In this document: positions 51,921 through 64,000 of the stretch, one piece after another | How positions within the stretch are numbered: position 1 is the first letter of the stretch | How the letters are laid out: each line of letters opens with the position of its first letter | Origin: an uncultured Fibrobacter sp. | GTDB lineage: Bacteria > Fibrobacterota > Fibrobacteria > Fibrobacterales > Fibrobacteraceae | Length of the DNA: 64,000 bases | Assembly: GCA_946414075.1 (NCBI GenBank) | Contig: CAMKNA010000009.1 | Location: 1 to 64,000, forward strand | Direction: 5' to 3' | Position numbers and translations under genes: made by a program | Notes under the pieces: model-generated | What the model was told of the DNA's origin: nothing | The model's database searches: none | What the model saw: the letters and a program-made list of their open reading frames with translations, nothing else

Positions 51921-54900
51921 ATGGAACGTAGATGGAACCTGGCTACCCTGATGGGGCTTGCCCTGCTATTTCTGGCATCTACAACTGCTGCTGCGGATAC
52001 GAACCCCGTGCAGGAACAGGAGACGATCCCCGGTGCCGTGCCCGGGAAAAAGTTCTGCTTCAGTTCGGTTGTGGATAACAATTGGATTGGACAGCTTGTG
52101 TTAAGCCAGCAGCCAAGTTCCTACGAGCCGCAGTTTTATACAGAGCCAGGGGATAGTTATGACATCCTTCATGAGGAGTACTGCTTTGACCTGTGGTACG
52201 ACAAATCGGGCGAAACCACTGATGTTTTGTCCTATTTGTCAAGCATAAACAATGGCGATGGATTGCAGAATATCTCGCTACAGTTGGGTACGGATATCGA
52301 CTTCGGTGGTGTCAATACGGATGGTAAATCCTGCTCGGCCTCCTTTATGCCCATTCCCTACCTGAGGTATGGCTCCTTCTTTGGAGATGGACACACCATC
52401 AAGAACCTGTGCTATATCGCCGATGAACCGAGTTCCGGTGTAGGTTTCTTTTCCGAAGCCATCGACGGAGCCTTCTATGATTTGAAATTTGAAAACGTCT
52501 ACTTCAAGGTGACCAGCGATGACCCGTCCTACAGTGTTCCGGTGGGCGTGGTCACGGGTAGTGTGGGATCTGCGGAATACGGATCCTCGTTTAGAAACAT
52601 CAATCTCAAGGATGTGAAGATAGTGGCTTCCCGGGCGGGTGGCCTTACGGGCCTTGCCGAAGGTGGGGCTCCACGCATTCGGAACATTTCAGGCGAGAAT
52701 ATCGAAATTGTCGCCACTACGGGTGTGATTCCCAATTCCGTGAGCTCAGGTGCATCCGTTACCGGTATGGGAATCTATTTGGGTGGCCTTGTGGGCATGG
52801 CGGATGCGGGTGTTTATGTCGAGAATGCTGGCATTACCGGACTGGATGTTCATTCGGACTTTGACTTCTACACAAAGGAGGAACCTCCTCCCTGTGCTTC
52901 TTCTATGGCTGCGGTAGAGGAACGGGTTGGCGGCTTGGTCGGTATTGCTCAAAATGGGCCTGTCGCTATCAGCAATACTTACACGGTCGGTAACATTTCA
53001 ATTCCTTCTGGGGCGTTGGACTCCGCCGGGAAAGGAAAAATCGGTTTCTTGGCCGGGTATGTGGCCCTTAATACTAATGGGGGCTATATTTTTGGAAACA
53101 ACTACCACTATGGTGAATCGGACTACCTGGCCAAGGACTTGCTGGGCTATATCTCCATAGATAACATAAGTTATGGTACCGATAGCTGGATAACGGTGTC
53201 GGTGAACTCGAGATTTAAACCAGGGGGACATAACTACCGCAATGCGATAAATAAGTATTTTTCACCCACGACAGATCTTGTCCCTCCCAATTACCAGCTA
53301 GCCATCCTTGACTATAGCAACTATGGTGGCTATTTGTCTGCCCAAAACATGAAGATAGATGACTTCGCCATCAATCTGAATAATCGAATAGAAATGTTGA
53401 AAGAGCACAACTTCTATGATTCGGAGACCTTCGTGCTCTGGTCTCGCAAGGATGGCGTAAACAATGGCCTTCCCGTGTTTGCCAACAAGAGTCTCAAGCC
53501 GTTCTACCTGATTTCCTTTATGGTTTCGGAAGAGGCCTACTCCAGCTTGTCCAGTACGGACAAGCAGAGCTGGGCAAAGGCCGGCGTGGAGGTGAATTCT
53601 GATGGTGCGTTTATCAGCATGTACACTGACTGCTCCGGCAAGATTACCAACAGTTCCTGGATGAAGGCTGCTACTGCGGTCATAGGGGATTCCCGCTATT
53701 GGAGCTACTATAACGAGGATGCTGGTAAGAATGTGCCGTTCGCCCTGAAGACATCGACCGTGTTCAACTCGAACATGGAACTGTCTCTCGCGTCGAGAAC
53801 CACAGTGGTGGTCCGTCACGGCTTCGTTGAATCGACCGACGAGGATACCTTCTATTCCCTAGACGAATATCCCACTTACATTGGTGAAGATGTCTACTTT
53901 ATGGGCACGCCGGCGAAAACGATTAGCAGCGATAGCGTCTGGACCAGGATTCCCTACCTTGCTACCTACAGCTATGGGGAGTACGGGTATTATGGATTCC
54001 GCCTTGCAAGGAAGTTGTGCTTTGACGATGTCTGCCGTTACGAAACCATACAGACGGATGGCACGGGCAAATTCTATGTCGACGCCCTTCCGCAACTCTC
54101 CAATGGGGATACGCTCTATGTAGTTTACGATGACAGCTATACGACTTATGACGAAGATACGGACCACAGTGCCCCCGGTGGATTCATGTTCGTGTCCGAC
54201 CTTCACGGTGGCATGTTTGACTCAGGTGTAGCCAATGTCCAGGCTTTTGGTGCGAATATCGATGGCGAAAGGGAACTTTATAGCGATTATATCGATTTGC
54301 TCATCGACACGCTGCCAACACCCCGCAGCCTGACCGAAATGCTTGGCTTGTTTAATGAACTGTCGGTACCGGTACCCTATTCGCCCTACTTGAAGGCGGA
54401 TTACCCGTCTACGACATGGGATAATGTGGACAACATCGTTGCTCTCGTGGTAGTGGGGTATATGAGCTCGTCGTCTGCCAAGGCCTGGATGAAAGAGGTG
54501 ATAAGTACATTGGCGAGTCCGTTTTACGACTATTCTTTCCCCACGGATACGCTTTCGGCCCTGGAGTCCCCTGCTACCATATTGGGTGAAATTAAGGCCA
54601 ATGACTCACAAACTCTTCGGTATGTCCGTTATGTGCGCTTGAATAAGAACGGCGAACTGGACCTGACTAACCTGATGGCTGCGTTGGAGTTTGCGAAGGA
54701 AAACTATCAGTACGAATACCCCATCTATGTGGGCTTCTTGCCAAAGATTTCGGATGTGGTTTACCGTGTCACATTTGATGCCAACTACAACCCGTACTAT
54801 AGGCCACCCTACATTGCTACGGAATGGAAAAACAAGAAAAAGCTAGAAGGCACCTACACCAAGGAAAATGCTAACGAGTCGTTCTTCAATGCGAACGAGT

Positions 54901-57716
54901 GGTATGTATTTAGGACGGATGCGTGCTATAACGGCTACTGGTCCAACGACAGTTACTTCTCAGATTTCGAAATTGCCAATTTCAACCAGTTGGAGGTGAT
55001 GGACTCCTCGTACTACACGGTGAATAAGGATGGCTCCAGGTCGATGACCCTTTATGCCGGTTGGGAAACGAATATAGACTATTGTGAAGAGATTGATGCT
55101 GGTTACCGAGTCACCTACGACGAACATGAAAATCGGATCTGGAACAACCGCATTATCAAGGACAACTCCGATTTGGGAAACATCGTGCTACAGCAAGTCT
55201 GGATGGGCGATACCTTGGAGCACAAGTCCGAGTCCCTGGACGAAGGGGTGACTGGGGTGTATGTTCCCTATGCCGACATGAACAGCTTCACATTCCAGGT
55301 CTATGCTGAAGGGTATCCGGGTTATGAGCTGGATGGCGACATCAAGTTCCGCTACATGGACTATAGCCGGCCCACGGGCGATAGCGATGGTAGCTTGACA
55401 ACCAGGAAGATTAAGGAAGGCGACACCTTGACCATCACTCCGGAAATGTACGAGGACATGGAGTTCTTTGCAGACTACACCTTCAAGAAGTTCAACATTG
55501 AATTCGTGACGCTCAAGAAGGATGTGCTCTATGGCGAGAACTCTTCCGCTACGGGTACCTATAGGCTCAAGTCCGAAGCCGATACCATTGATCTTCCCAA
55601 GTGGGTTTACACGGAAGAGCAGTGCGTGGTGGGCTGGACTGTACACCACGAATACATGGAACAGGATGAACCTATTTGGGAAGGTGGCGATGCCGACTGG
55701 AACCCCGATTGCATAGATGATCCTCACTGCGAATACAATAAACCTGACAATTGGGCTGTGTCTTTCGATGTCTTCGATTTTGCTCTGTCCGATGAATTGG
55801 ATAGGCAGGTCGGAAAGCGCGCGGAATGGTATCCCATGTATGCGTCATGGGTAGATGCACCGGTTTGCGTCAAGGAACTTGGCTACAAGCAGGCGAAGCT
55901 GGCTGTCGCCGAAAACGGCCTTGTGGAGTTCAAGGAACTGTTGCGCGATTCTACCGGCAAGGTGGTTGGCTCCCAGGTGCACAAGTTTGCCAAGGACAGC
56001 ACCATGCTCCTGCCTTCTGGCGTGAAGGGCTCGAACTTTGTTGTCCGTGGCGCTCCGTCGAAGGGCTATGTGCTGGATTCCCTGGTCATGATCCTGAATG
56101 GCAAGACTTCCGTGTATCACGAGGGCGATACCCTCAAGGGCAGCATCGCCGCGGCGACCTTCAAGGCGTACTTTATGCCGGAGAACCCCGTTCCCGCGAA
56201 GTTTGCCCAGGCCGACCTGCTTCAGTCCGGAAGTGCCGTACAGTTTAAGTATGCTACTAACGAGTTCGCGGCCAGCGGCGCCTCTGTCAAGATTGTCTTG
56301 GAAGACGACGACGGCAAGATTGTGGTCGATACGGTGATCAAGATTTCGAAGACGCCTTACGAGGGCTCCTGGGAACACTTCCCCCTGCGTGCCGGAACCT
56401 ACTTGCTGACGGCTACCGTCTCTAACAGCAGGTCTTCTGACTTGTTCGAGAAGGATTTCGAGGTGAAGTCCACCATCGCCTCCAAGAAGGATGGCTGGCA
56501 GATGCTCTCGCTATCCAATGTCATCATGGATTCCGTGACCTGGGATGACGACATCCGCTTCTACTGGTGGGATGATTCCAAGAACTATGGTACCTTCTGG
56601 CGTTACCAGAGGCTCATGGAAGAAGACGAAGTCGACTACCTGACGGGATACTGGTACAGTTCTCTGGAAGGCCGCCCGCTGGTAATGCGCAAGGATATGA
56701 AGCCGCCCAAATCTCCTGTAGAGTGGGACCTGGATAGCGTCTATACCGGCTGGAACATGGTGGCCAACCCCTACGGCTGGTATGTGGATCTCTATGGCGA
56801 GAACCAGGACAAGAAGGTTTCCGGTACCGAGAAGTCCGATGTGGAATTCTGGAGCTGGAACGACAGCCTGGGCGCCTACGAAGAAGTAGATGTGGTTGGT
56901 CCTTACGAGGCCGTATGGGCGAAGGTCAAGGGCCCCAGCAAGTGGAAACTGCCCTCTAAGCCTGAATTCGTAGCGAAGGTTGACGAGGATGGTAATGATT
57001 CCTTGATGCAGCCTCTGAAGAAGACGGTGAAGCTTGCTTCTAAGGGCAAGAACAGCTGGGCTATCCGGGCCATCCTGCGCGATGCCAAGGGCAAGCGCGA
57101 CGGCTGGAACATCATGGGCGTCTCCGAGTCGGGATGGTCTTCCGAAGAGCCTCCTTCCGGAATGGGCGACCATGTGAACCTGTCCATCAAGGACGGCAAC
57201 AGGCTTCTGGCCAAGTCCTTCAAGAAGGCCGCCGGAGACAGCTATGAATGGACCATCTCTCTGGACGCCTCCGGCGACCGTACGGGATACCTGCACTTCG
57301 AAGGCCTTGAAAATCTCAGGGCCGATGGACTCAAGGTGTTCGTGACGGTGGACGGAACCACCACCCAGATGGCGGAAAACGACACCCTGAAGGTCGCTAT
57401 CGGAAGTCTCGCCAAGACGGCGACAGTCCGCGTGGCGCCCACCGCCCGTACCGTCGTGGTTCAGAAGCTGAACGGGCTCCGTGCCTTCCAGTCGGGTAAC
57501 GCCCTCCAGGTGGGCTTCCAGGTCTCTGAAGGCCTGGCGGGTTCCCGCGCCTATGTGGAAATCCTCGACATGAATGGCAAGGTCCTGTCTTCTGTCTCTG
57601 GAACTGCGGTTTCTGGCTCTAACTCCATGACCCTGCAGGCGCCCAAGTCCGGCCTCTACATGGTCCGTGTCCGGGTGGGTAGCAAGCAGGCCGCCGGCTC
57701 CATTGCCGTGAAATAG
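51921..57716 (+). CDS. giant secreted protein with GLUG motifs, InlB-like repeats and T9SS-like C-terminal domain
   Basis: A 1,931-residue protein with a signal peptide (MERRWNLATLMGLALLFLAS..., cleavage about residue 25). Three GLUG-type motifs (GGLTGLAEGG, GGLVGMADAG, GGLVGIAQNG) lie around residues 235-355, as in adhesins. Around residues 950-1250 there are segments such as YRVTFDANYNPYY resembling Listeria-Bacteroides (InlB B) repeats. A beta-rich region near 1520-1750 contains many W/Y/D. The last ~75 residues (VEILDMNGKVLSSVSGTAVSG...GLYMVRVRVG) match the type A sorting domain used by type IX secretion. Likely a surface adhesin or substrate-binding protein; the gene has its own leader hairpin and terminator. 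Confidence 0.8.
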   Translation: MERRWNLATLMGLALLFLASTTAAADTNPVQEQETIPGAVPGKKFCFSSVVDNNWIGQLVLSQQPSSYEPQFYTEPGDSYDILHEEYCFDLWYDKSGETTDVLSYLSSINNGDGLQNISLQLGTDIDFGGVNTDGKSCSASFMPIPYLRYGSFFGDGHTIKNLCYIADEPSSGVGFFSEAIDGAFYDLKFENVYFKVTSDDPSYSVPVGVVTGSVGSAEYGSSFRNINLKDVKIVASRAGGLTGLAEGGAPRIRNISGENIEIVATTGVIPNSVSSGASVTGMGIYLGGLVGMADAGVYVENAGITGLDVHSDFDFYTKEEPPPCASSMAAVEERVGGLVGIAQNGPVAISNTYTVGNISIPSGALDSAGKGKIGFLAGYVALNTNGGYIFGNNYHYGESDYLAKDLLGYISIDNISYGTDSWITVSVNSRFKPGGHNYRNAINKYFSPTTDLVPPNYQLAILDYSNYGGYLSAQNMKIDDFAINLNNRIEMLKEHNFYDSETFVLWSRKDGVNNGLPVFANKSLKPFYLISFMVSEEAYSSLSSTDKQSWAKAGVEVNSDGAFISMYTDCSGKITNSSWMKAATAVIGDSRYWSYYNEDAGKNVPFALKTSTVFNSNMELSLASRTTVVVRHGFVESTDEDTFYSLDEYPTYIGEDVYFMGTPAKTISSDSVWTRIPYLATYSYGEYGYYGFRLARKLCFDDVCRYETIQTDGTGKFYVDALPQLSNGDTLYVVYDDSYTTYDEDTDHSAPGGFMFVSDLHGGMFDSGVANVQAFGANIDGERELYSDYIDLLIDTLPTPRSLTEMLGLFNELSVPVPYSPYLKADYPSTTWDNVDNIVALVVVGYMSSSSAKAWMKEVISTLASPFYDYSFPTDTLSALESPATILGEIKANDSQTLRYVRYVRLNKNGELDLTNLMAALEFAKENYQYEYPIYVGFLPKISDVVYRVTFDANYNPYYRPPYIATEWKNKKKLEGTYTKENANESFFNANEWYVFRTDACYNGYWSNDSYFSDFEIANFNQLEVMDSSYYTVNKDGSRSMTLYAGWETNIDYCEEIDAGYRVTYDEHENRIWNNRIIKDNSDLGNIVLQQVWMGDTLEHKSESLDEGVTGVYVPYADMNSFTFQVYAEGYPGYELDGDIKFRYMDYSRPTGDSDGSLTTRKIKEGDTLTITPEMYEDMEFFADYTFKKFNIEFVTLKKDVLYGENSSATGTYRLKSEADTIDLPKWVYTEEQCVVGWTVHHEYMEQDEPIWEGGDADWNPDCIDDPHCEYNKPDNWAVSFDVFDFALSDELDRQVGKRAEWYPMYASWVDAPVCVKELGYKQAKLAVAENGLVEFKELLRDSTGKVVGSQVHKFAKDSTMLLPSGVKGSNFVVRGAPSKGYVLDSLVMILNGKTSVYHEGDTLKGSIAAATFKAYFMPENPVPAKFAQADLLQSGSAVQFKYATNEFAASGASVKIVLEDDDGKIVVDTVIKISKTPYEGSWEHFPLRAGTYLLTATVSNSRSSDLFEKDFEVKSTIASKKDGWQMLSLSNVIMDSVTWDDDIRFYWWDDSKNYGTFWRYQRLMEEDEVDYLTGYWYSSLEGRPLVMRKDMKPPKSPVEWDLDSVYTGWNMVANPYGWYVDLYGENQDKKVSGTEKSDVEFWSWNDSLGAYEEVDVVGPYEAVWAKVKGPSKWKLPSKPEFVAKVDEDGNDSLMQPLKKTVKLASKGKNSWAIRAILRDAKGKRDGWNIMGVSESGWSSEEPPSGMGDHVNLSIKDGNRLLAKSFKKAAGDSYEWTISLDASGDRTGYLHFEGLENLRADGLKVFVTVDGTTTQMAENDTLKVAIGSLAKTATVRVAPTARTVVVQKLNGLRAFQSGNALQVGFQVSEGLAGSRAYVEILDMNGKVLSSVSGTAVSGSNSMTLQAPKSGLYMVRVRVGSKQAAGSIAVK

Positions 57717-57814: not shown

Positions 57815-59431
57815 ATGACAAAGGCTAAATTCATCAAGTTCATCATCGCGTCGGTGCTTGCCATCGTTGCCCTCTTCTTGCCCTACGAATCCCTCGGATT
57901 CGATGCCGCAAGCCCCATGGGAATCCTGAATCCGCTCGAAATTCGCGTTATTGGCGTTTTCGTGATGGCGGCCCTGTTCTGGATCCTGCAACCGTTCCCG
58001 ATCTGGTCGACCTCGGTGCTCGTCATCGTGCTCATGATCGTGACGATGTCTGACTCGTCCCTCTCTCCGTTCCGCGTGGACGGCGTGACCATGATCAGCC
58101 ATAAGTCCATTATGGCTACGTTTGCAAACCCGATCATCATGCTCTTCTTGGGCGGCTTCTTCCTTGCTGCTGCCGCTACCAAGTACAAGATGGACTTGAA
58201 CCTTGCCCGCGTGCTCCTGAAGCCCTTCGGCAAGAACCCGAAGTTCGTGCTCCTCGGCCTCATGCTCATCACCGCCGTGTTCTCCATGTTCATGAGCAAC
58301 ACCGCTACCGCCGCCATGATGCTTGCCATCTTGGCCCCGGTGCTCAAGCTCTTCGAACCTGATGACCGCGGTAAGGCTGCCTTTGCCCTTGCCATTCCCC
58401 TGGGCGCCAACATCGGCGGTATGGGAACCCCCATCGGTACGCCTCCCAACGCCATCGCCCTTGGCGCCCTGAACGACGCTGTTGCCCGTGGCGACCTGGT
58501 GGCCAATCCCGTGACCTTCGGTCAGTGGATGGCTTTTGGTATCCCCTATGTGATTATCCTTATGGTGGTGGCATGGCTCTTGCTCGTGAAGATTTACCCC
58601 ATCAAGATGAAGCAGATGGTCCTGAATATCGAAGGTGCTGGCAAGTTCGACACCAGCCCCAAGGCCATTATCGTCTACATCACCTTTATCCTGTGCGTGA
58701 TCTTGTGGGTGACCGGTAAGAATGTCCACGGTATCAACGACAACGCCATCGCCATGATCCCCATGGCCGTGTTTGCCCTGACCGGCGTGATTACCAAGAA
58801 AGACTTGAACGCCATGAGCTGGGATGTGCTCTGGCTGGTGGCCGGTGGCTTTGCCCTGGGCGTTGGCCTGAACGCTACGGGGCTTGCCGCTCACTTGATC
58901 AAGACGATTCCTTTTGCAAGCTGGTCTCCGATTGCTCTCATGATCGGCTGCGGTATCATCTGCCTGTTCATGGCCAACTTCATGAGCCACACTTCTACCG
59001 CTACCCTGCTGGTGCCGATTCTCTGCGCCGTGGGCATTGCCTGCCAGGACAACCTGATTGGCCTTGGTGGCGTGACCGCCCTACTGGTTTCTGTGGCCTT
59101 CGCAAGCTCTCTCGGCATGAGCCTCCCGATTTCTACGCCGCCTAACGCTCTTGCCCACGCTACGGGTTATACCGATACCCGTGGCATGGCCATTACCGGC
59201 GTGGTCATGGGGATTCTCGGCCTGATCGTGTCTTGGATCATGATGATCTTCCTTGCCAAGGTGAACTTCTTCGGTACGCCGGTTCCTAAGGCCGCTGAAG
59301 CTGCCCCCGCTGCCCCTGTTGCTGCCGCTACCGTCGATACTGCCGCTGCTGTGGCTGCCGACTCTACGGTCGCTGTGAGCGCTGACACCGCTGCTAAGGT
59401 AGAGGTGGTTGATTCTGCTGCAGCAAAGTAA
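57815..59431 (+). CDS. SLC13/DASS-family dicarboxylate or citrate:Na+ symporter
   Basis: A 538-residue transporter with about 12 spans. It carries the DASS/CitT pattern: FMSNTATAAMMLAILAPVL (SNT motif), GTPIGTPPNAIALGAL and a second FMSHTSTATLLVPIL with SISTPPNALAHATG-type MSLPISTPPNALAHATGY. It imports succinate, malate or citrate with Na+, or exports succinate. The C-terminus has an unusual ~45-residue Ala/Val/Asp-rich tail after the last span. A TACATT box ends 10 bases before the ATG. Its own terminator lies at 59471-59496. Confidence 0.9.
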   Translation: MTKAKFIKFIIASVLAIVALFLPYESLGFDAASPMGILNPLEIRVIGVFVMAALFWILQPFPIWSTSVLVIVLMIVTMSDSSLSPFRVDGVTMISHKSIMATFANPIIMLFLGGFFLAAAATKYKMDLNLARVLLKPFGKNPKFVLLGLMLITAVFSMFMSNTATAAMMLAILAPVLKLFEPDDRGKAAFALAIPLGANIGGMGTPIGTPPNAIALGALNDAVARGDLVANPVTFGQWMAFGIPYVIILMVVAWLLLVKIYPIKMKQMVLNIEGAGKFDTSPKAIIVYITFILCVILWVTGKNVHGINDNAIAMIPMAVFALTGVITKKDLNAMSWDVLWLVAGGFALGVGLNATGLAAHLIKTIPFASWSPIALMIGCGIICLFMANFMSHTSTATLLVPILCAVGIACQDNLIGLGGVTALLVSVAFASSLGMSLPISTPPNALAHATGYTDTRGMAITGVVMGILGLIVSWIMMIFLAKVNFFGTPVPKAAEAAPAAPVAAATVDTAAAVAADSTVAVSADTAAKVEVVDSAAAK

Positions 59432-59545: not shown

Positions 59546-59568
59546 CCTAAAAAAGTATCTTTTATAGG
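59546..59568 (+). promoter_or_regulatory. 23-base dyad upstream of the DUF4956 operon
   Basis: CCTAAAAAAG (59546-59555) and CTTTTATAGG (59559-59568) are inverted repeats with one mismatch around TAT. The dyad ends 19 bases before the DUF4956 ATG, overlapping where a -10 region should be. It looks like a repressor or activator site or a leader hairpin. Confidence 0.45.
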
Positions 59569-59587
59569 TAAAAACAACGGAGTCTCT

Positions 59588-60271
59588 ATGCTTGATTTAT
59601 TGGCTGTCCAGTCCAGTACGGCAAACGCTACCATTATTACCCTGGCCTATACCCTGCTCTTGGCCTTTGTGCTTTCGTCCATCATCGGGTGGACCTACGA
59701 GCGGACCTTCCTTGGGCTTTCCTATTCCAGGAACTATGTGCAGGCCCTGGTGCTTTCGTCCGTGGTGGCCGCTACGGTGATGCAGGCCATCGGTGACAAT
59801 GTGGGCCGTGGTCTTGGTATGCTGGGCGCCCTTTCCATTGTCCGCTTCCGCACTAGCTTCAAGGATCCTCGGGATATCATGTTCATCTTTGCGGCTCTCG
59901 GTGCGGGTATCGGCTGCGGTGTGTATGCCTGGGGCGCTGCCGTGGGCGGAACCCTTGCCTTTTGTATCGTGGCCTTCTTGCTTTCCCGTACGGGTCTTGG
60001 CACCAAGCATTTCTTTGACGGTATGCTCCGCATGGCCCTGCCCAACACTTCTGAACCCCGTATGGCTGTAGAAAACATTATGCGCAAGAACCTGAAGACC
60101 TACATATTGATTACCATGCGGGAAGTGAATGGCGGCGAGCGCATAGATGTGGCCTACCAGATCAAGCTGAAGGCGTCTAAGCCTGCGGCGGATATCCTAG
60201 CGGAACTTGCCAAGGTAGAAGGGCTGTCCGACATCCAGTTCATGATGCAGGACGCCACCACGGACATGTAG
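59588..60271 (+). CDS. DUF4956 four-TM membrane protein
   Basis: A 227-residue protein. Four membrane segments lie in the first ~150 residues, with the conserved region RNYVQALVLSSVVAATVMQAIGDNVGRGLGMLGALSIVRFRTSFKDPRDIMFIFAALGAGIGCG; the last ~75 form a small cytosolic domain (VAYQIKLKASKPAADILAELAKVEGLSDI). This is DUF4956, which is found next to VTC-type polyphosphate polymerase and CotH-kinase genes in many bacteria, with unknown role. The ATG at 59588 has a CGGAG site. It is the first gene of the operon 59588-64000+. Confidence 0.9.
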   Translation: MLDLLAVQSSTANATIITLAYTLLLAFVLSSIIGWTYERTFLGLSYSRNYVQALVLSSVVAATVMQAIGDNVGRGLGMLGALSIVRFRTSFKDPRDIMFIFAALGAGIGCGVYAWGAAVGGTLAFCIVAFLLSRTGLGTKHFFDGMLRMALPNTSEPRMAVENIMRKNLKTYILITMREVNGGERIDVAYQIKLKASKPAADILAELAKVEGLSDIQFMMQDATTDM

Positions 60272-60284
60272 GGGAGGATAGAAA

Positions 60285-61379
60285 ATGGCTTTGAAAAACA
60301 CCTTCCTGATTTCTTCGGTCTACAAGCGCAAGCTTTCTATTGCCTGGATTCTGGCGGTGGCCGCCATCGTGGCACTTGGGTATTTCTACCAGGGCAATGT
60401 GGCCCTGTTCAAGGGAATCGCCGAAGCTTCTGAAACCATCATCAGCGTACCCAGCGCTACCGAGATTGTGAAGGTCCATGTGATGCCCGGTCAAGAGATT
60501 CAGGCGGGCGACACCATCGTGGAACTGAATCGCCCCGACCTGACCCTTCGCATTAACGAGGTGACCCGCGAGCTGGACGCCATCGAAGGTCGTAGCAGCC
60601 TGAACAAGGCGGAAATCGACCAACGCGTGGCTTCCGTGAAGGCGGACCTTGCCACCCGCAGTTCTGCCCTCCGGTTCGAAATCAACAGGCTGGAGACGGA
60701 ATACCAGAAGAACAAGGAAATTTCCTCCAAGCTCAAGAGCCTTTCGGCAAGCAACGCCAAGGCTGGCGGCAACGACGCCATGGCCATGCAGATCAAGAAC
60801 CTGAAGGATGAACTTGCCCTGGCGGAAAAAAACGCCAACGAGCAGATTGCCCTTTTGCAGGGCAGCCGAAGCCTCCAGCGCAAAAGTGGCGTCACCGAGG
60901 CCGCCACCCTGCACAAGGAACTGGAACAGCTGAAAAAGGAACAGGAAGACCTGGTGCAGATTGCCAAGGAAAGCTGGGTGGTGGGCAGCGTGAATGTCCG
61001 CGAAGGCGAAAAGGTGTCCAGCTTTACGCCCATCGTGACCCTTACCCACAAGTCGCCGTCCCTGATTCGCGGCTACATCAACGAGCAGGTCTACCAGCAC
61101 ATGAACCTGGGCAAGGATGTGAATGTGAAGCCCCTTGCCGGTGGCGAGAAGGCCATCAAGGGTGAAGTGGTCGGTCTTTCTAGCCGCATCGTGGTATTCC
61201 CGGAGCGCATGTGGAAAATGCCCGACATGCCCGTGTATGGCCGCGAGGTGACCATCCGGATTTCCGAGGACAATCCCTTCCTGTTGGGCGAGATGGTGAC
61301 CATCTCCGAAGAGGGCAAGATAAAGGACCTGGCCACCGAGATTATGGATGCTCTCTTTGGGAACAATGCCAATGAATAA
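60285..61379 (+). CDS. HlyD-like periplasmic adaptor (membrane fusion) protein
   Basis: A 364-residue protein. It has one N-terminal span (LSIAWILAVAAIVALGYF), a biotinyl/lipoyl half-motif (SVPSATEIVKVHVMPGQEIQAGDTIVELNRPD), a coiled coil of about 150 residues, and the second half (WVVGSVNVREGEKVSSFTPIVTL) followed by a beta-barrel region. This is the layout of HlyD/EmrA adaptors that link an inner-membrane partner to TolC. No ABC, RND or MFS pump lies in the cluster. It begins 13 bases after the DUF4956 stop with a GGGAGG ribosome site and overlaps the TolC-like gene by 8 bases. Confidence 0.88.
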   Translation: MALKNTFLISSVYKRKLSIAWILAVAAIVALGYFYQGNVALFKGIAEASETIISVPSATEIVKVHVMPGQEIQAGDTIVELNRPDLTLRINEVTRELDAIEGRSSLNKAEIDQRVASVKADLATRSSALRFEINRLETEYQKNKEISSKLKSLSASNAKAGGNDAMAMQIKNLKDELALAEKNANEQIALLQGSRSLQRKSGVTEAATLHKELEQLKKEQEDLVQIAKESWVVGSVNVREGEKVSSFTPIVTLTHKSPSLIRGYINEQVYQHMNLGKDVNVKPLAGGEKAIKGEVVGLSSRIVVFPERMWKMPDMPVYGREVTIRISEDNPFLLGEMVTISEEGKIKDLATEIMDALFGNNANE

Positions 61380-62766
61380 GTTTTCCCTGATACCCATGCT
61401 GGCGGGCGTCGCTGTACTTTCTACTTCCGCCGTAGCCGCCCCCTTGACTTGGGAGGCGCTGACAGAATCTGTGGACAAGGATCCCGTACTGCAGACTTCG
61501 CAGAAGCGTTCCGAGGCGGCAGCCCAGGACCCGGGAACCAAGCTTTGGGACAACCTGGAGTTTCGTTACCAGTTGGACGGATTCAGCTTTGCCAAGCATG
61601 ACTTTGAACTGCGCTTAAAGCCCAAGGCGTTCGGCCTCGGTTCTGCTGACAAGCGCCAGTACGAGACCCTGCGGGATTACCAGAAGGCCCGCCTGGCGGT
61701 GGACCGTTCGTACCTGCTTTACGACCGCTACGAGCGGGCGCTCCGCTATGTCATCCGCCGGAAGATTGCCGAGGTGGACCGCCAGCTTTATCAGGTGGAG
61801 CTGGACCGTATCGAGGTGCTGCACCTGAAGGCGGGCAGCGAGACTTTTAATTCCCAGGATCTGATTGCCGCCCTGGAGCAAAAGGCTGCCCGTCGGGCGG
61901 AACTGCTGGGCGACAGCACCGCTCTCCGAGATGCGGAACTGAAGCTCAAGTCTTGGGTGCCGGACTTTGATTCCGTAGGCCTGGACACTTCGTGGCTCCC
62001 TACCATGGATGAACTTGCCAAGGGCCTGCAGGACGGTATTACGCTGAATGATCAGTTCCCTGAAGTCCAAAAGGCTAAAGCCAAGATGGATTATGAACGA
62101 GCCAAGTCCAAGCGCGACCTTTCTAAGGGCAATGACTACATCTCCCACATTGGTGTAGGGTATTCCCTACGGATAGAATCATTGATGAAGCAGTACAAGG
62201 AGCTGGATAAGGCTGATGTTGCCGAGTCAGGAAAGTACTACGATTATCAAGACGAGTGGCTGGACAAAAATGGCTGTGAAAAGTGGGGCACATGCAACAA
62301 GACGGCGGAAATTTTGGTGCCCGATAAGGATGACCGCCAACTCAAGGACAAGTTCTTTGTGAACCTGGCGGTAAGGCTCCCGTTCTTTGACGACAACAAC
62401 GGGAATGCTCTTAGGAACCAGGTAGACGAATTGGATGCCGAAAGTGACTACCTGGATGCGGTGCGCACCTTGAACCAGAAGGTGTCGCGCCTGTCCGAAG
62501 AAATTGTGGCCCTGGTTTCGCAATGGAAGGTCCAGAAGGAATTCGTGGAGAAGGTGAATGCGGGTAACCTGTTCGAAGACTTTGCCCAGTCGGCAGGTGC
62601 CGACCCGCTGTTGCTCTTGCGTGCCCGGGAGAGCGCCCTGGAAAGCGACCTGAAGGCTTTACGCCTGGAATCTGAAATTTTCGAACGTTACATCATCCTG
62701 TTGCAGTATACGGGAATCTTCGCCAATCCCAGTGTCAAGAACCACCTGCGCGAGGGGCTTAAGTAA
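61372..62766 (+). CDS. TolC-like outer-membrane channel protein
   Basis: A 464-residue protein with a signal peptide (MNKFSLIPMLAGVAVLSTSAVA) and two similar halves rich in long helices, ending in segments such as LRARESALESDLKALRLESEIFERYIILLQYTG typical of outer-membrane efflux proteins. Length fits TolC/OEP subunits. There is a loop of about 60 residues with several Cys (NGCEKWGTCNK). It directly follows the adaptor gene (8-base overlap), so the two likely form an envelope-spanning conduit. I use ATG 61372; ATG 61366 two codons upstream is possible. Confidence 0.82.
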   Translation: MNKFSLIPMLAGVAVLSTSAVAAPLTWEALTESVDKDPVLQTSQKRSEAAAQDPGTKLWDNLEFRYQLDGFSFAKHDFELRLKPKAFGLGSADKRQYETLRDYQKARLAVDRSYLLYDRYERALRYVIRRKIAEVDRQLYQVELDRIEVLHLKAGSETFNSQDLIAALEQKAARRAELLGDSTALRDAELKLKSWVPDFDSVGLDTSWLPTMDELAKGLQDGITLNDQFPEVQKAKAKMDYERAKSKRDLSKGNDYISHIGVGYSLRIESLMKQYKELDKADVAESGKYYDYQDEWLDKNGCEKWGTCNKTAEILVPDKDDRQLKDKFFVNLAVRLPFFDDNNGNALRNQVDELDAESDYLDAVRTLNQKVSRLSEEIVALVSQWKVQKEFVEKVNAGNLFEDFAQSAGADPLLLLRARESALESDLKALRLESEIFERYIILLQYTGIFANPSVKNHLREGLK

Positions 62767-62767
62767 A

Positions 62768-63586
62768 ATGGCTGAAGCTCGCGGTTTTAGCTTGCTGGAG
62801 CGTTTCGAGCTCAAGTACCACATTCCCGTGGCGTGGGCGGACCGTATTGGCGAATTCATTTCGCCCTATTGCGAGGAAGACCATTATTCCCAGATTACAC
62901 CGGGGCATTTCTACTGGATTACCAACCTTTACCTGGATTCGGACCGTTGGACATTCCTGGGCTGGAAAAAGGCAAGGCTCCTGGACCGCTTCAACATGCG
63001 CATCCGCACTTACGGTGAGCATCCGGCACAGGATGGCACCTTCCATTTTGAAAGCAAGCGGAAAGTGAAGGAAATCTGCTACAAGAGCCGAGCCACCATC
63101 AAGGGGATCAGTCCCGGTGAAGTCTGGAAAATGAAGCCCGAAGATTGGCCCTGCAAGAGCGATACGGACCGCAAGTACCTGAAGGATTTTCTGTACAAGA
63201 CCCACCTGCACAACGCCCACCCCAGGCTCCTGACCCAGTACAAACGGCGAGCCTGGTTCGGCCTTCGCGAAGAATACTCTCGGGTGACCATCGATACGGG
63301 CATGCGGTTTAGGGAAGAGACCGGTTTTGACTATACCGTAGACCCCCATTATATGCATTCCACGGGGATTCCCCGGTTCTTTAAGCCGGGTTGCGATGCG
63401 GTACTGGAACTGAAGTGCCCCTGTTCCCAGGTGCCTTTCTGGATGATAGATTTGATTCGTTTTTTGAACCTGCGACAGGGCGGTTTTTCTAAATTCGGGA
63501 ATGCTGCTGCGGAATGGTCCAGGGTCTACGAACATCCCAAGGATTTCAAGGACCCGTACTGGACTAGGCTCGCGGGAAATTTTTAA
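62768..63586 (+). CDS. VTC-domain polyphosphate polymerase-fold protein
   Basis: A 272-residue soluble protein with the VTC tunnel-fold signature: LLERFELKYHIP (the E-x-K), NLYLDSDRW, RFNMRIRTYG (R-x-R), HFESKRKVKEICYKSRA, TQYKRRAWFG, RVTIDTGMRF and AVLELKCPC. These basic and acidic residues line the active tunnel that binds nucleotide and phosphate chains in yeast Vtc4. It has no membrane span, so it must act in the cytosol beside DUF4956. It starts 1 base after the TolC-like stop. A polyP role is inferred; other tunnel-fold polymer chemistry is possible. Confidence 0.9.
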   Translation: MAEARGFSLLERFELKYHIPVAWADRIGEFISPYCEEDHYSQITPGHFYWITNLYLDSDRWTFLGWKKARLLDRFNMRIRTYGEHPAQDGTFHFESKRKVKEICYKSRATIKGISPGEVWKMKPEDWPCKSDTDRKYLKDFLYKTHLHNAHPRLLTQYKRRAWFGLREEYSRVTIDTGMRFREETGFDYTVDPHYMHSTGIPRFFKPGCDAVLELKCPCSQVPFWMIDLIRFLNLRQGGFSKFGNAAAEWSRVYEHPKDFKDPYWTRLAGNF

Positions 63587-63617
63587 GGGCGGTGTATCCG
63601 CAAAAAGGGGAGGCTCC

Positions 63618-64000
63618 ATGCTTCTGAAAAAATGGTCTGTATTCTGTATGGCGGCGCTGCTCTCGGCGTTTCTTTGTTCCTGTTCCGACAGTTCCAGCGG
63701 ATCTGCTGATGACCCGGAAGAGAATGAGGAAGGTGGGGAAAACGGCAAGGACAATCCTTCGGATTCTACCGATGCCAACGGCGCCTATGTGATGATTACC
63801 GAAATCATGTACAACGCTCCTGAGAATTCTTCTCTGGAATGGGTGGAGCTGAAAATTGTCGGTGGTTCTGCCATGCAACACATGGACCAGTATGCACTTC
63901 GGCTGGATGGGGCTGTTTCTTACGAATTCCCCGATGAGCCTTTGGATACCAACGAGTATATCGTGGTGACCAACGATCCCGAATTGTTCCGCAAGACCTA
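63618..64000 (+). CDS. lipoprotein with lamin-tail domain, probably CotH-like, 5' part only
   Basis: The first 127 codons, open to the right edge. A signal peptide with lipobox (MLLKKWSVFCMAALLSAFLCSC, Cys about residue 20-22) precedes a Ser/Asp/Glu/Gly-rich linker of about 35 residues, then YVMITEIMYNAPENSSLEWVELKIVGG, the opening of a lamin-tail (LTD) domain. In this family an LTD domain is often followed by a CotH kinase domain; the VTC and DUF4956 neighbours make that likely, but it lies outside the window. The start has a GGGGAGG ribosome site 31 bases after the VTC stop. Confidence 0.78.
   Translation, partial: MLLKKWSVFCMAALLSAFLCSCSDSSSGSADDPEENEEGGENGKDNPSDSTDANGAYVMITEIMYNAPENSSLEWVELKIVGGSAMQHMDQYALRLDGAVSYEFPDEPLDTNEYIVVTNDPELFRKT

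What the first reader, a model, noticed from the sequence alone, without database searches (positions are those of the whole stretch)
59546..64000. DUF4956-adaptor-TolC-VTC-lamin-tail/CotH operon: possible pump-less envelope-spanning polymer system
Five plus-strand genes are packed with gaps or overlaps of -8 to 31 bases: DUF4956 (4 TM), HlyD-like adaptor, TolC-like channel, VTC-fold polymerase and a lamin-tail lipoprotein. DUF4956/VTC/CotH clusters are known but unexplained. Here they come with an adaptor and outer-membrane channel yet without an ABC, RND or MFS pump. A simple reading is that DUF4956 plus cytosolic VTC takes the pump's place and the adaptor/TolC pair carries a product (polyphosphate or another anionic chain) outward, where the lipoprotein or CotH kinase uses it. 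This is a hypothesis from gene order and folds.
Basis: partly seen in the sequence, partly recalled or inferred. Interest (0 to 1): 0.88.

Follow-up and report, generated by a model that had tools for sequence, protein, structure and literature searches.

The report
Pump-less polyphosphate-type export module
A four-gene set found in several bacterial phyla joins an enzyme of the yeast polyphosphate-making family to a membrane protein and a TolC-type duct with no known pump, so it may be the first dedicated bacterial machine that makes a phosphate chain and pushes it out of the cell; the function itself is untested.

Summary
Window 59588-63586 holds DUF4956, an EmrA/MacA-like adaptor, a TolC-fold channel and a VTC enzyme, spaced 13, -14 and 1 nt, then an LTD lipoprotein ending at contig position 65240. 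That protein has no CotH domain. The four-gene core recurs, complete, in about 70 of 80 loci fetched from Fibrobacterota, Desulfobacterota, Gammaproteobacteria, Nitrospirota, Calditrichota and others. No export pump family was seen with it outside Fibrobacter.

Evidence added here for polyphosphate: (1) the VTC profile matches yeast Vtc4, and the residues mutated to kill Vtc4 are invariant. (2) Phosphate importers sit inside the operon in four genomes: PiT three times, Pst-PhoU once. (3) PPK1 is absent from all 37 Fibrobacter genomes and from 16 of 21 other carriers.

Best reading: VTC makes polyphosphate from ATP at the inner face, DUF4956 passes it, and adaptor/TolC leads it out. Synthesis chemistry is well supported; transport through DUF4956 and the duct is inferred from gene order. 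Against: no canonical adaptor RLS motif, one locus without the channel gene, and CotH kinases beside only one of the two main clades. A Pel-accessory role does not fit, because PelG is absent.

The parts
59588..60271 (+). DUF4956 inner-membrane protein: 4 predicted TM helices plus cytosolic ACT/ferredoxin-like C-terminal domain (227 aa)
   Evidence: PF16316 50.1 bits; AF2 model pLDDT 73.5 with C-terminal domain matching ACT domains; hydropathy and invariant R86, R88
60285..61379 (+). HlyD/EmrA/MacA-like periplasmic adaptor with one N-terminal membrane anchor (364 aa)
   Evidence: HlyD_3 34.3 bits; family profile hits EmrA 4tko E 2.4e-7 and MacA
61366..62766 (+). TolC-fold outer-membrane channel with signal peptide (466 aa)
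   Evidence: AF2 pLDDT 82.2; Foldseek to TolC E 4.5e-13, TM 0.64
62768..63586 (+). VTC-type (CYTH/TTM) polyphosphate polymerase, no TM or signal peptide seen (272 aa)
   Evidence: PF09359 104.8 bits; profile hits Vtc4 3g3q E 1.5e-10; Vtc4 R264/R266/E426/K458 equivalents invariant in 30 sequences
63618..64000 (+). LTD lipoprotein, 540 aa, continues to contig position 65240 beyond the window; three LTD domains, no CotH
   Evidence: PF00932 84.4 bits, 3 stretches; next gene downstream is on the minus strand

Best explanation
A synthase-coupled export module for polyphosphate, or a closely related phosphate chain. SHOWN by sequence, fold or conservation: a cytosolic VTC enzyme with the Vtc4 active-site set; a 4-TM DUF4956 protein with an ACT-like domain; an inner-membrane-anchored EmrA/MacA-like adaptor; a TolC-fold outer-membrane channel; these four as one gene unit across many phyla, with no known pump beside them and in several lineages with a phosphate importer inside the operon. 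INFERRED: VTC polymerises the gamma-phosphate of ATP at the inner face of the membrane; an oligomer of DUF4956 with its invariant RFRT/KD cytosolic loop takes the place of the Vtc1-type membrane channel, and polymerisation itself drives the chain across; the adaptor seals DUF4956 to the TolC-like channel so that the chain leaves the cell; surface LTD/CotH or phytase-like proteins then bind, use or trim it. Chemistry (VTC makes a phosphate chain) about 0.7; export through the adaptor/TolC duct about 0.45 overall.
For: Core conserved as a unit in 70-71 of 80 loci, pairwise distance correlations 0.54-0.76, all p 0.001. DUF4956 in 47 and VTC in 48 of 61 relatives, close together. Vtc4 hit and invariance of R78, R80, E214, K242; Vtc4 R264A/R266A/E426N is the published inactive triple mutant (PMC9911596). 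PiT directly after VTC in L112, between channel and VTC in L125 and in the independently drawn L188; PstS-PhoU-PstC-PstA and two ABC ATPases directly after VTC in L122/L191, first gene overlapping VTC by 17 nt. Phytase-like PF13449 beside the module in L129, with similar proteins in L112 and L043. PPK1 absent from 37/37 Fibrobacter and 16/21 other carriers; PPK2 absent from 28/28 Fibrobacter searched. No RND or export-ABC family listed among about 100 neighbour ORFs. TolC fold. Coupled synthesis and translocation of polyP by VTC is established in yeast.
Against: No experiment. DUF4956 has no solved homologue found by sequence and its model is only moderately confident, so channel function is a guess. 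The classical TolC-docking RLS motif (from memory) is missing from the adaptors. L127 has DUF4956, adaptor and VTC but no channel gene between them. Related VTC-DUF4956 pairs exist without adaptor/channel in other diderms (L184-L186, L189). In S. intermedius the VTC deletion (SIR_1593) still aggregated and made Pel, whereas the DUF4956 and CotH deletions changed Pel (PMC12345266), so the three do not act as one simple pathway there. The PPK1 absence is confounded by relatedness in Fibrobacter, and no background rate was measured for the other phyla.
Confidence: 0.45

Rival explanations
1. DUF4956 is a sensor/regulator of the MgtC-ACT type and VTC stores polyP inside the cell or periplasm; the adaptor/TolC pair exports something else (for example excess phosphate, a metal or a glycan) and is co-regulated by phosphate status.
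For: DUF4956 has an ACT-like regulatory domain and weak MgtC similarity; S. intermedius deletion data link DUF4956 to the amount of Pel, not to its presence; VTC-DUF4956 pairs occur without adaptor/channel.
Against: No pump for the adaptor was found nearby in other phyla; adaptor and channel genes stay with VTC and DUF4956 in nearly all complete type-A loci, lying between them in most.
Confidence: 0.25
2. DUF4956 is an unrecognised secondary (ion-driven) pump for a small or polymeric cargo and VTC phosphorylates or caps that cargo, so the module exports a phosphorylated glycan or lipid rather than free polyP.
For: The pump position in the module is filled only by DUF4956; DUF4956/VTC/CotH genes flank Pel exopolysaccharide clusters in Gram-positives.
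Against: No glycosyltransferase or other cargo-making gene recurs beside the module in the family lists; the recurring partners are phosphate importers and CotH/LTD proteins; the Vtc4 active site is intact.
Confidence: 0.15
3. In Fibrobacter the adaptor/TolC pair borrows the ABC-2 permeases encoded just downstream, so it is an ordinary ABC export system split over two operons.
For: In many Fibrobacter genomes a TolC + HlyD + two ABC-2 permease cluster follows directly on the same strand.
Against: That cluster has its own TolC and HlyD; it was not seen in module loci of other families and phyla; in the window's genome a minus-strand gene separates the two.
Confidence: 0.07
4. The genes are accessory factors of a Pel-type polysaccharide system, as DUF4956/VTC/CotH are in Gram-positive bacteria.
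For: Described accessory genes of pel clusters in streptococci, clostridia and bifidobacteria (PMC7112168).
Against: PelG is absent above cut-off from every VTC-carrying Fibrobacterota genome searched; it occurs above cut-off only in three VTC-negative ones.
Confidence: 0.04

Closest known systems
Eukaryotic VTC complex (Vtc1/Vtc3/Vtc4), vacuolar polyP polymerase-translocase
   Same: CYTH/TTM polymerase of the Vtc4 type on the cytosolic side, genetically tied to a small multi-TM membrane protein; synthesis probably coupled to translocation
   Different: Membrane part is DUF4956 (4 TM + ACT-like domain), not the 3-TM VTC1-type domain; no SPX domain; a periplasmic adaptor and TolC-fold channel are added
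DUF4956-polyP polymerase-CotH accessory genes of Gram-positive Pel clusters
   Same: Same DUF4956 and VTC families, often CotH
   Different: No adaptor or outer-membrane channel, and a pel operon beside them; here no Pel genes, and CotH is missing from the window operon
Tripartite adaptor-TolC systems (EmrAB-TolC, MacAB-TolC, HlyBD-TolC)
   Same: EmrA/MacA-like adaptor plus TolC-fold channel encoded together
   Different: No MFS, ABC or RND pump; a polymerase and DUF4956 stand in that place; RLS docking motif not found
Synthase-dependent exopolysaccharide secretion (cellulose Bcs, alginate, Pel)
   Same: Works alike if the reading is right: a cytosolic polymerase drives its own chain through inner membrane and envelope
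   Different: Phosphate-chain polymerase instead of a glycan synthase; TolC/adaptor duct instead of beta-barrel/TPR porin

Membership tests
VTC-type polyphosphate polymerase (Vtc4 catalytic domain) | VTC/TTM domain | tested here: met
   PF09359 104.8 bits, cut-off 23; profile to Vtc4 3g3q E 1.5e-10
VTC-type polyphosphate polymerase (Vtc4 catalytic domain) | Catalytic R264, R266, E426, K458 (Vtc4 numbering) | tested here: met
   Map to invariant R78, R80, E214, K242 of the window VTC in 30 sequences; Vtc4 K455 is not matched
VTC-type polyphosphate polymerase (Vtc4 catalytic domain) | Makes polyP from ATP | not testable with these tools
   Needs purified protein
Eukaryotic VTC complex | VTC1-type 3-TM domain and SPX domain | tested here: not met
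   No such domain in any of the five proteins; filed as 'works like', not 'is a'
Tripartite adaptor-TolC exporter | Periplasmic adaptor of HlyD/EmrA/MacA fold | tested here: met
Tripartite adaptor-TolC exporter | TolC-fold outer-membrane channel | tested here: met
Tripartite adaptor-TolC exporter | ABC, RND or MFS inner-membrane pump in the locus | tested here: not met
   None in the operon; no RND, MacB or export ABC among listed families of about 100 neighbour ORFs in other phyla; the two ABC ATPases of the Nitrospirales locus lie with Pst genes; one MFS_1 ORF not traced
Tripartite adaptor-TolC exporter | RLS motif (R-x3-L-x6-S) at the adaptor hairpin tip | tested here: not met
   No pattern match in the window adaptor; only four stray matches at differing positions among 31 adaptors; motif definition from memory
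Pel-associated DUF4956/VTC/CotH set | pel genes in the genome | tested here: not met
   PelG PF16933 absent from G000 and above cut-off from all VTC-carrying Fibrobacterota searched (a sub-threshold 4e-4 hit in G027)
Pel-associated DUF4956/VTC/CotH set | CotH in the operon | tested here: not met
   Window LTD protein lacks CotH; present beside the core in at least 15 relatives

The most novel reading that the evidence does not exclude
A fourth class of tripartite envelope system, in which no pump exists: the polymerisation of polyphosphate by VTC is the motor, DUF4956 is the inner-membrane pore, and an adaptor plus TolC-type channel carry the chain out of the cell. It would be the dedicated polyP synthase of bacteria without PPK1, and in CotH-bearing lineages the exported chain could serve as phosphate donor for extracellular kinases that have no ATP.
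Probability: 0.35. Interest if true: 0.93.

Novelty: new variant of a known kind. Interest (0 to 1): 0.85.

Why it matters
Extracellular polyphosphate of bacteria has no agreed export route that I know of, and DUF4956/VTC/CotH clusters have no agreed function. A compact four-gene module that recurs across phyla, sits with phosphate importers and often occurs where PPK1 is missing makes both questions directly testable in one operon. If right, it adds a class of tripartite system without a pump, and extends the yeast idea of coupled polyP synthesis and translocation to the diderm envelope.

Tried and rejected
(1) CotH at the end of the window operon: sequence past 64000 shows LTD domains only. 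(2) An invariant periplasmic loop of DUF4956 (GLSYS, residues 43-47) as the adaptor contact: looked type-A specific against distant DUF4956, but GLSYS is also present in adaptor-less relatives L184, L186 and L189, so it proves nothing. (3) Downstream ABC-2 cluster as the missing pump: own TolC and HlyD, not conserved outside Fibrobacter. (4) Pel-accessory role: PelG absent. (5) Adaptor RLS motif: not found. (6) PhoB/PhoR as regulators beside the module: the three two-component neighbours scanned resemble copper/metal, NarL-type and BaeS families better. (7) Sequence search of PDB with the single VTC, and with the channel or DUF4956 profiles: no meaningful hit. (8) First choice of L044 adaptor coordinates was wrong (it cut out the fused C-terminal propeller); corrected afterwards, so the L044 row of alignment A5 should be ignored.
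Full report
OBSERVATION. With the best starts they are DUF4956 59588-60271, adaptor 60285-61379, channel 61366-62766, VTC 62768-63586 and an LTD lipoprotein from 63618; gaps are 13, -14, 1 and 31 nt. The window is G000:C9:1-64000 of a Fibrobacter-like genome of 2.31 Mb in 65 contigs, and C9 runs on to 76954. The LTD gene ends at 65240 and holds three LTD domains; there is no CotH, and the next gene is on the other strand.

THE PARTS. VTC: PF09359 at 104.8 bits. A profile of 30 relatives finds yeast Vtc4 (3g3q, E 1.5e-10) ahead of the Vtc2/Vtc3 subunits. Vtc4 R264, R266, E279, K281, K294, R296, R361, R373, E426, K428 and K458 fall on invariant columns (R78, R80, E95, K97, K106, R108, R160, R172, E214, K216, K242 of the window protein); R264A/R266A/E426N is the published inactive triple mutant (PMC9911596). 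Channel: sequence match to OEP is below cut-off, but the AF2 model (pLDDT 82) has the TolC layout and matches TolC at Foldseek E 4.5e-13. Adaptor: EmrA and MacA are the nearest solved relatives, but the RLS docking motif is not found. DUF4956: four hydrophobic helices, then a beta-alpha domain resembling ACT domains; moderate confidence only (pLDDT 73.5); R86 and R88 are invariant even in distant DUF4956.

HOW WIDESPREAD. In 61 relatives, VTC occurs in 48 and DUF4956 in 47. In the genus the two hits lie about 2.6-2.7 kb apart in the genomes compared, the room taken by adaptor and channel; seven genus loci read in full show all five genes in order. The five-gene order also occurs in two other families of the class (L042, L044), and L043 has the four-gene core with CotH upstream. 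Other Fibrobacterota families have a shorter VTC-DUF4956 form without adaptor or channel. A scan of 84,980 species genomes with the type-A DUF4956 gave 235 relatives, 80 kept. By record titles these include Desulfobacterota (Desulfamplus, Desulfonema, Desulfatirhabdium), Gammaproteobacteria (Crenothrix, Methylococcales, Thiotrichaceae, Woeseia), Nitrospirales, Calditrichaeota, Delongbacteria, and single MAGs labelled Alphaproteobacteria and Planctomycetota; MAG labels were not checked. All four core genes are present in 70-71 of the 80. The rest are cut by contig ends, except L127, which lacks the channel gene; L101 has VTC split in two reading frames. Two orders occur: D-A-O-V, and A-O-V-D in Desulfonema, Desulfatirhabdium, the Calditrichaeota MAG and others. 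Divergence of the four proteins is correlated over 26 non-redundant loci (r 0.54-0.76, permutation p 0.001 each). Outside Fibrobacter the module is rare in even samples: clear type-A hits in 3 of 274 genomes of the Crenothrix class, 3 of 297 of the Desulfonema phylum and 2 of 296 of the Nitrospirales phylum, query-bearing genomes included. Patchiness suggests horizontal spread (inference).

WHAT TRAVELS WITH IT. (a) No pump: about 100 neighbour ORFs from the non-Fibrobacter loci gave no RND or export-ABC family among those listed. One ABC ATPase and two BPD permeases were counted; the permeases are the Pst genes of L122; one MFS_1 ORF was not traced, and only the top 25 families per list are shown. 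(b) Phosphate importers: PiT directly after VTC in L112 and between channel and VTC in L125; the same D-A-O-PiT-V order in L188, a genome met by sampling rather than by the first scan; PstS, PhoU, PstC, PstA and two ABC ATPases directly after VTC in L122/L191. With a rough expectation of 0.16-0.5 such neighbours by chance, three or more has p of about 0.0006-0.014 (the expectation is my estimate). (c) CotH next to the core in at least 15 loci, often fused to LTD. The CotH loci placed in the tree are all in the Fibrobacterota/Desulfobacterota/Calditrichota part, and the placed phosphate-importer loci in the gamma/alpha/Nitrospirota part (L188 and L122 are placed only by relatedness to L125 and L118). 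(d) A propeller-like domain fused to the adaptor in 22 of the searched ORFs and a separate gene in L096, L097 and L102; weak DUF3616/phytase-like matches. The window adaptor and the other short Fibrobacter adaptors lack it.

PPK. PPK1 is absent from all 37 Fibrobacter genomes, and PPK2 from the 28 searched, while VTC is in 36 of 37. Across the 61 relatives, VTC and PPK1 tend to exclude one another (Fisher p 4e-5), but one genus dominates that table. Of 21 carrier genomes of other groups, 16 lack PPK1, including the complete Desulfonema magnum genome. VTC may thus be the only polyP synthase of many carriers (inference).

MECHANISM. The simplest reading is polyP synthesis by VTC on the cytosolic face, threading through DUF4956, and passage through adaptor and channel, with synthesis as the driving force, as proposed for yeast VTC from its structure. 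The enzyme step is well supported by residues and neighbours. The export step rests on gene order and on the absence of any other pump, and could be wrong: DUF4956 could be a regulator, and L127 and the adaptor-less pairs show that the halves can part. In S. intermedius, deletion of the DUF4956 gene raised and of CotH lowered Pel, and the VTC deletion still aggregated (PMC12345266), which fits a modulating role in that organism.

KNOWN AND NEW. DUF4956, VTC and CotH were noted beside Gram-positive pel operons (PMC7112168). I found no paper in the held library that joins VTC with TolC and HlyD. The Pel link does not hold here. What is new is the cross-phylum four-gene core with a complete duct and no pump, its phosphate-import partners, and its occurrence in genomes without PPK1. 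I rate it a new variant of a known kind; if the pump-less mechanism is shown, it would be a new class.

Noticed in passing
L002 6330-9152 (contig C9 65330-68152), minus strand: 940-aa protein with acetyl-CoA hydrolase/transferase domains behind an N-terminal half that holds an 'FHGLTDG' stretch resembling the HHxxxDG motif of condensation/acyltransferase domains; an unusual fusion.
   Followed up: no
L002 9369-14506 (contig C9 68369-73506): TolC + HlyD + two ABC-2 permeases with no ATPase gene beside them; the same cluster follows the five-gene operon directly in most other Fibrobacter loci.
   Followed up: partly
57815-59431: DASS-type anion symporter (TIGR00785) 156 nt upstream of DUF4956 on the same strand; the Fibrobacter loci compared have other upstream genes.
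   Followed up: partly
51921-57716: 1931-aa protein with a signal peptide-like start, immediately upstream of the symporter.
   Followed up: no
L096 9792-10748; L105 3524-5719 (C-terminal half): Propeller-like periplasmic domain fused to the adaptor in 22 ORFs and a separate gene in Chitinispirillaceae; weak DUF3616/phytase-like similarity.
   Followed up: partly
L136 2060-4003 and L093 5801-7891: Proteins with a PPDK_N (PEP-synthase ATP-binding) domain directly upstream of the module in two distant loci.
   Followed up: no
L101 12290-13110: VTC gene of Desulfamplus magnetovallimortis is split into two reading frames, by sequencing error or decay.
   Followed up: no
L184, L186, L189: A third DUF4956 subtype, closer to type A and keeping the GLSYS loop, paired with VTC but without adaptor or channel; CotH or CotH-like proteins adjoin it in L184 and L186.
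   Followed up: partly
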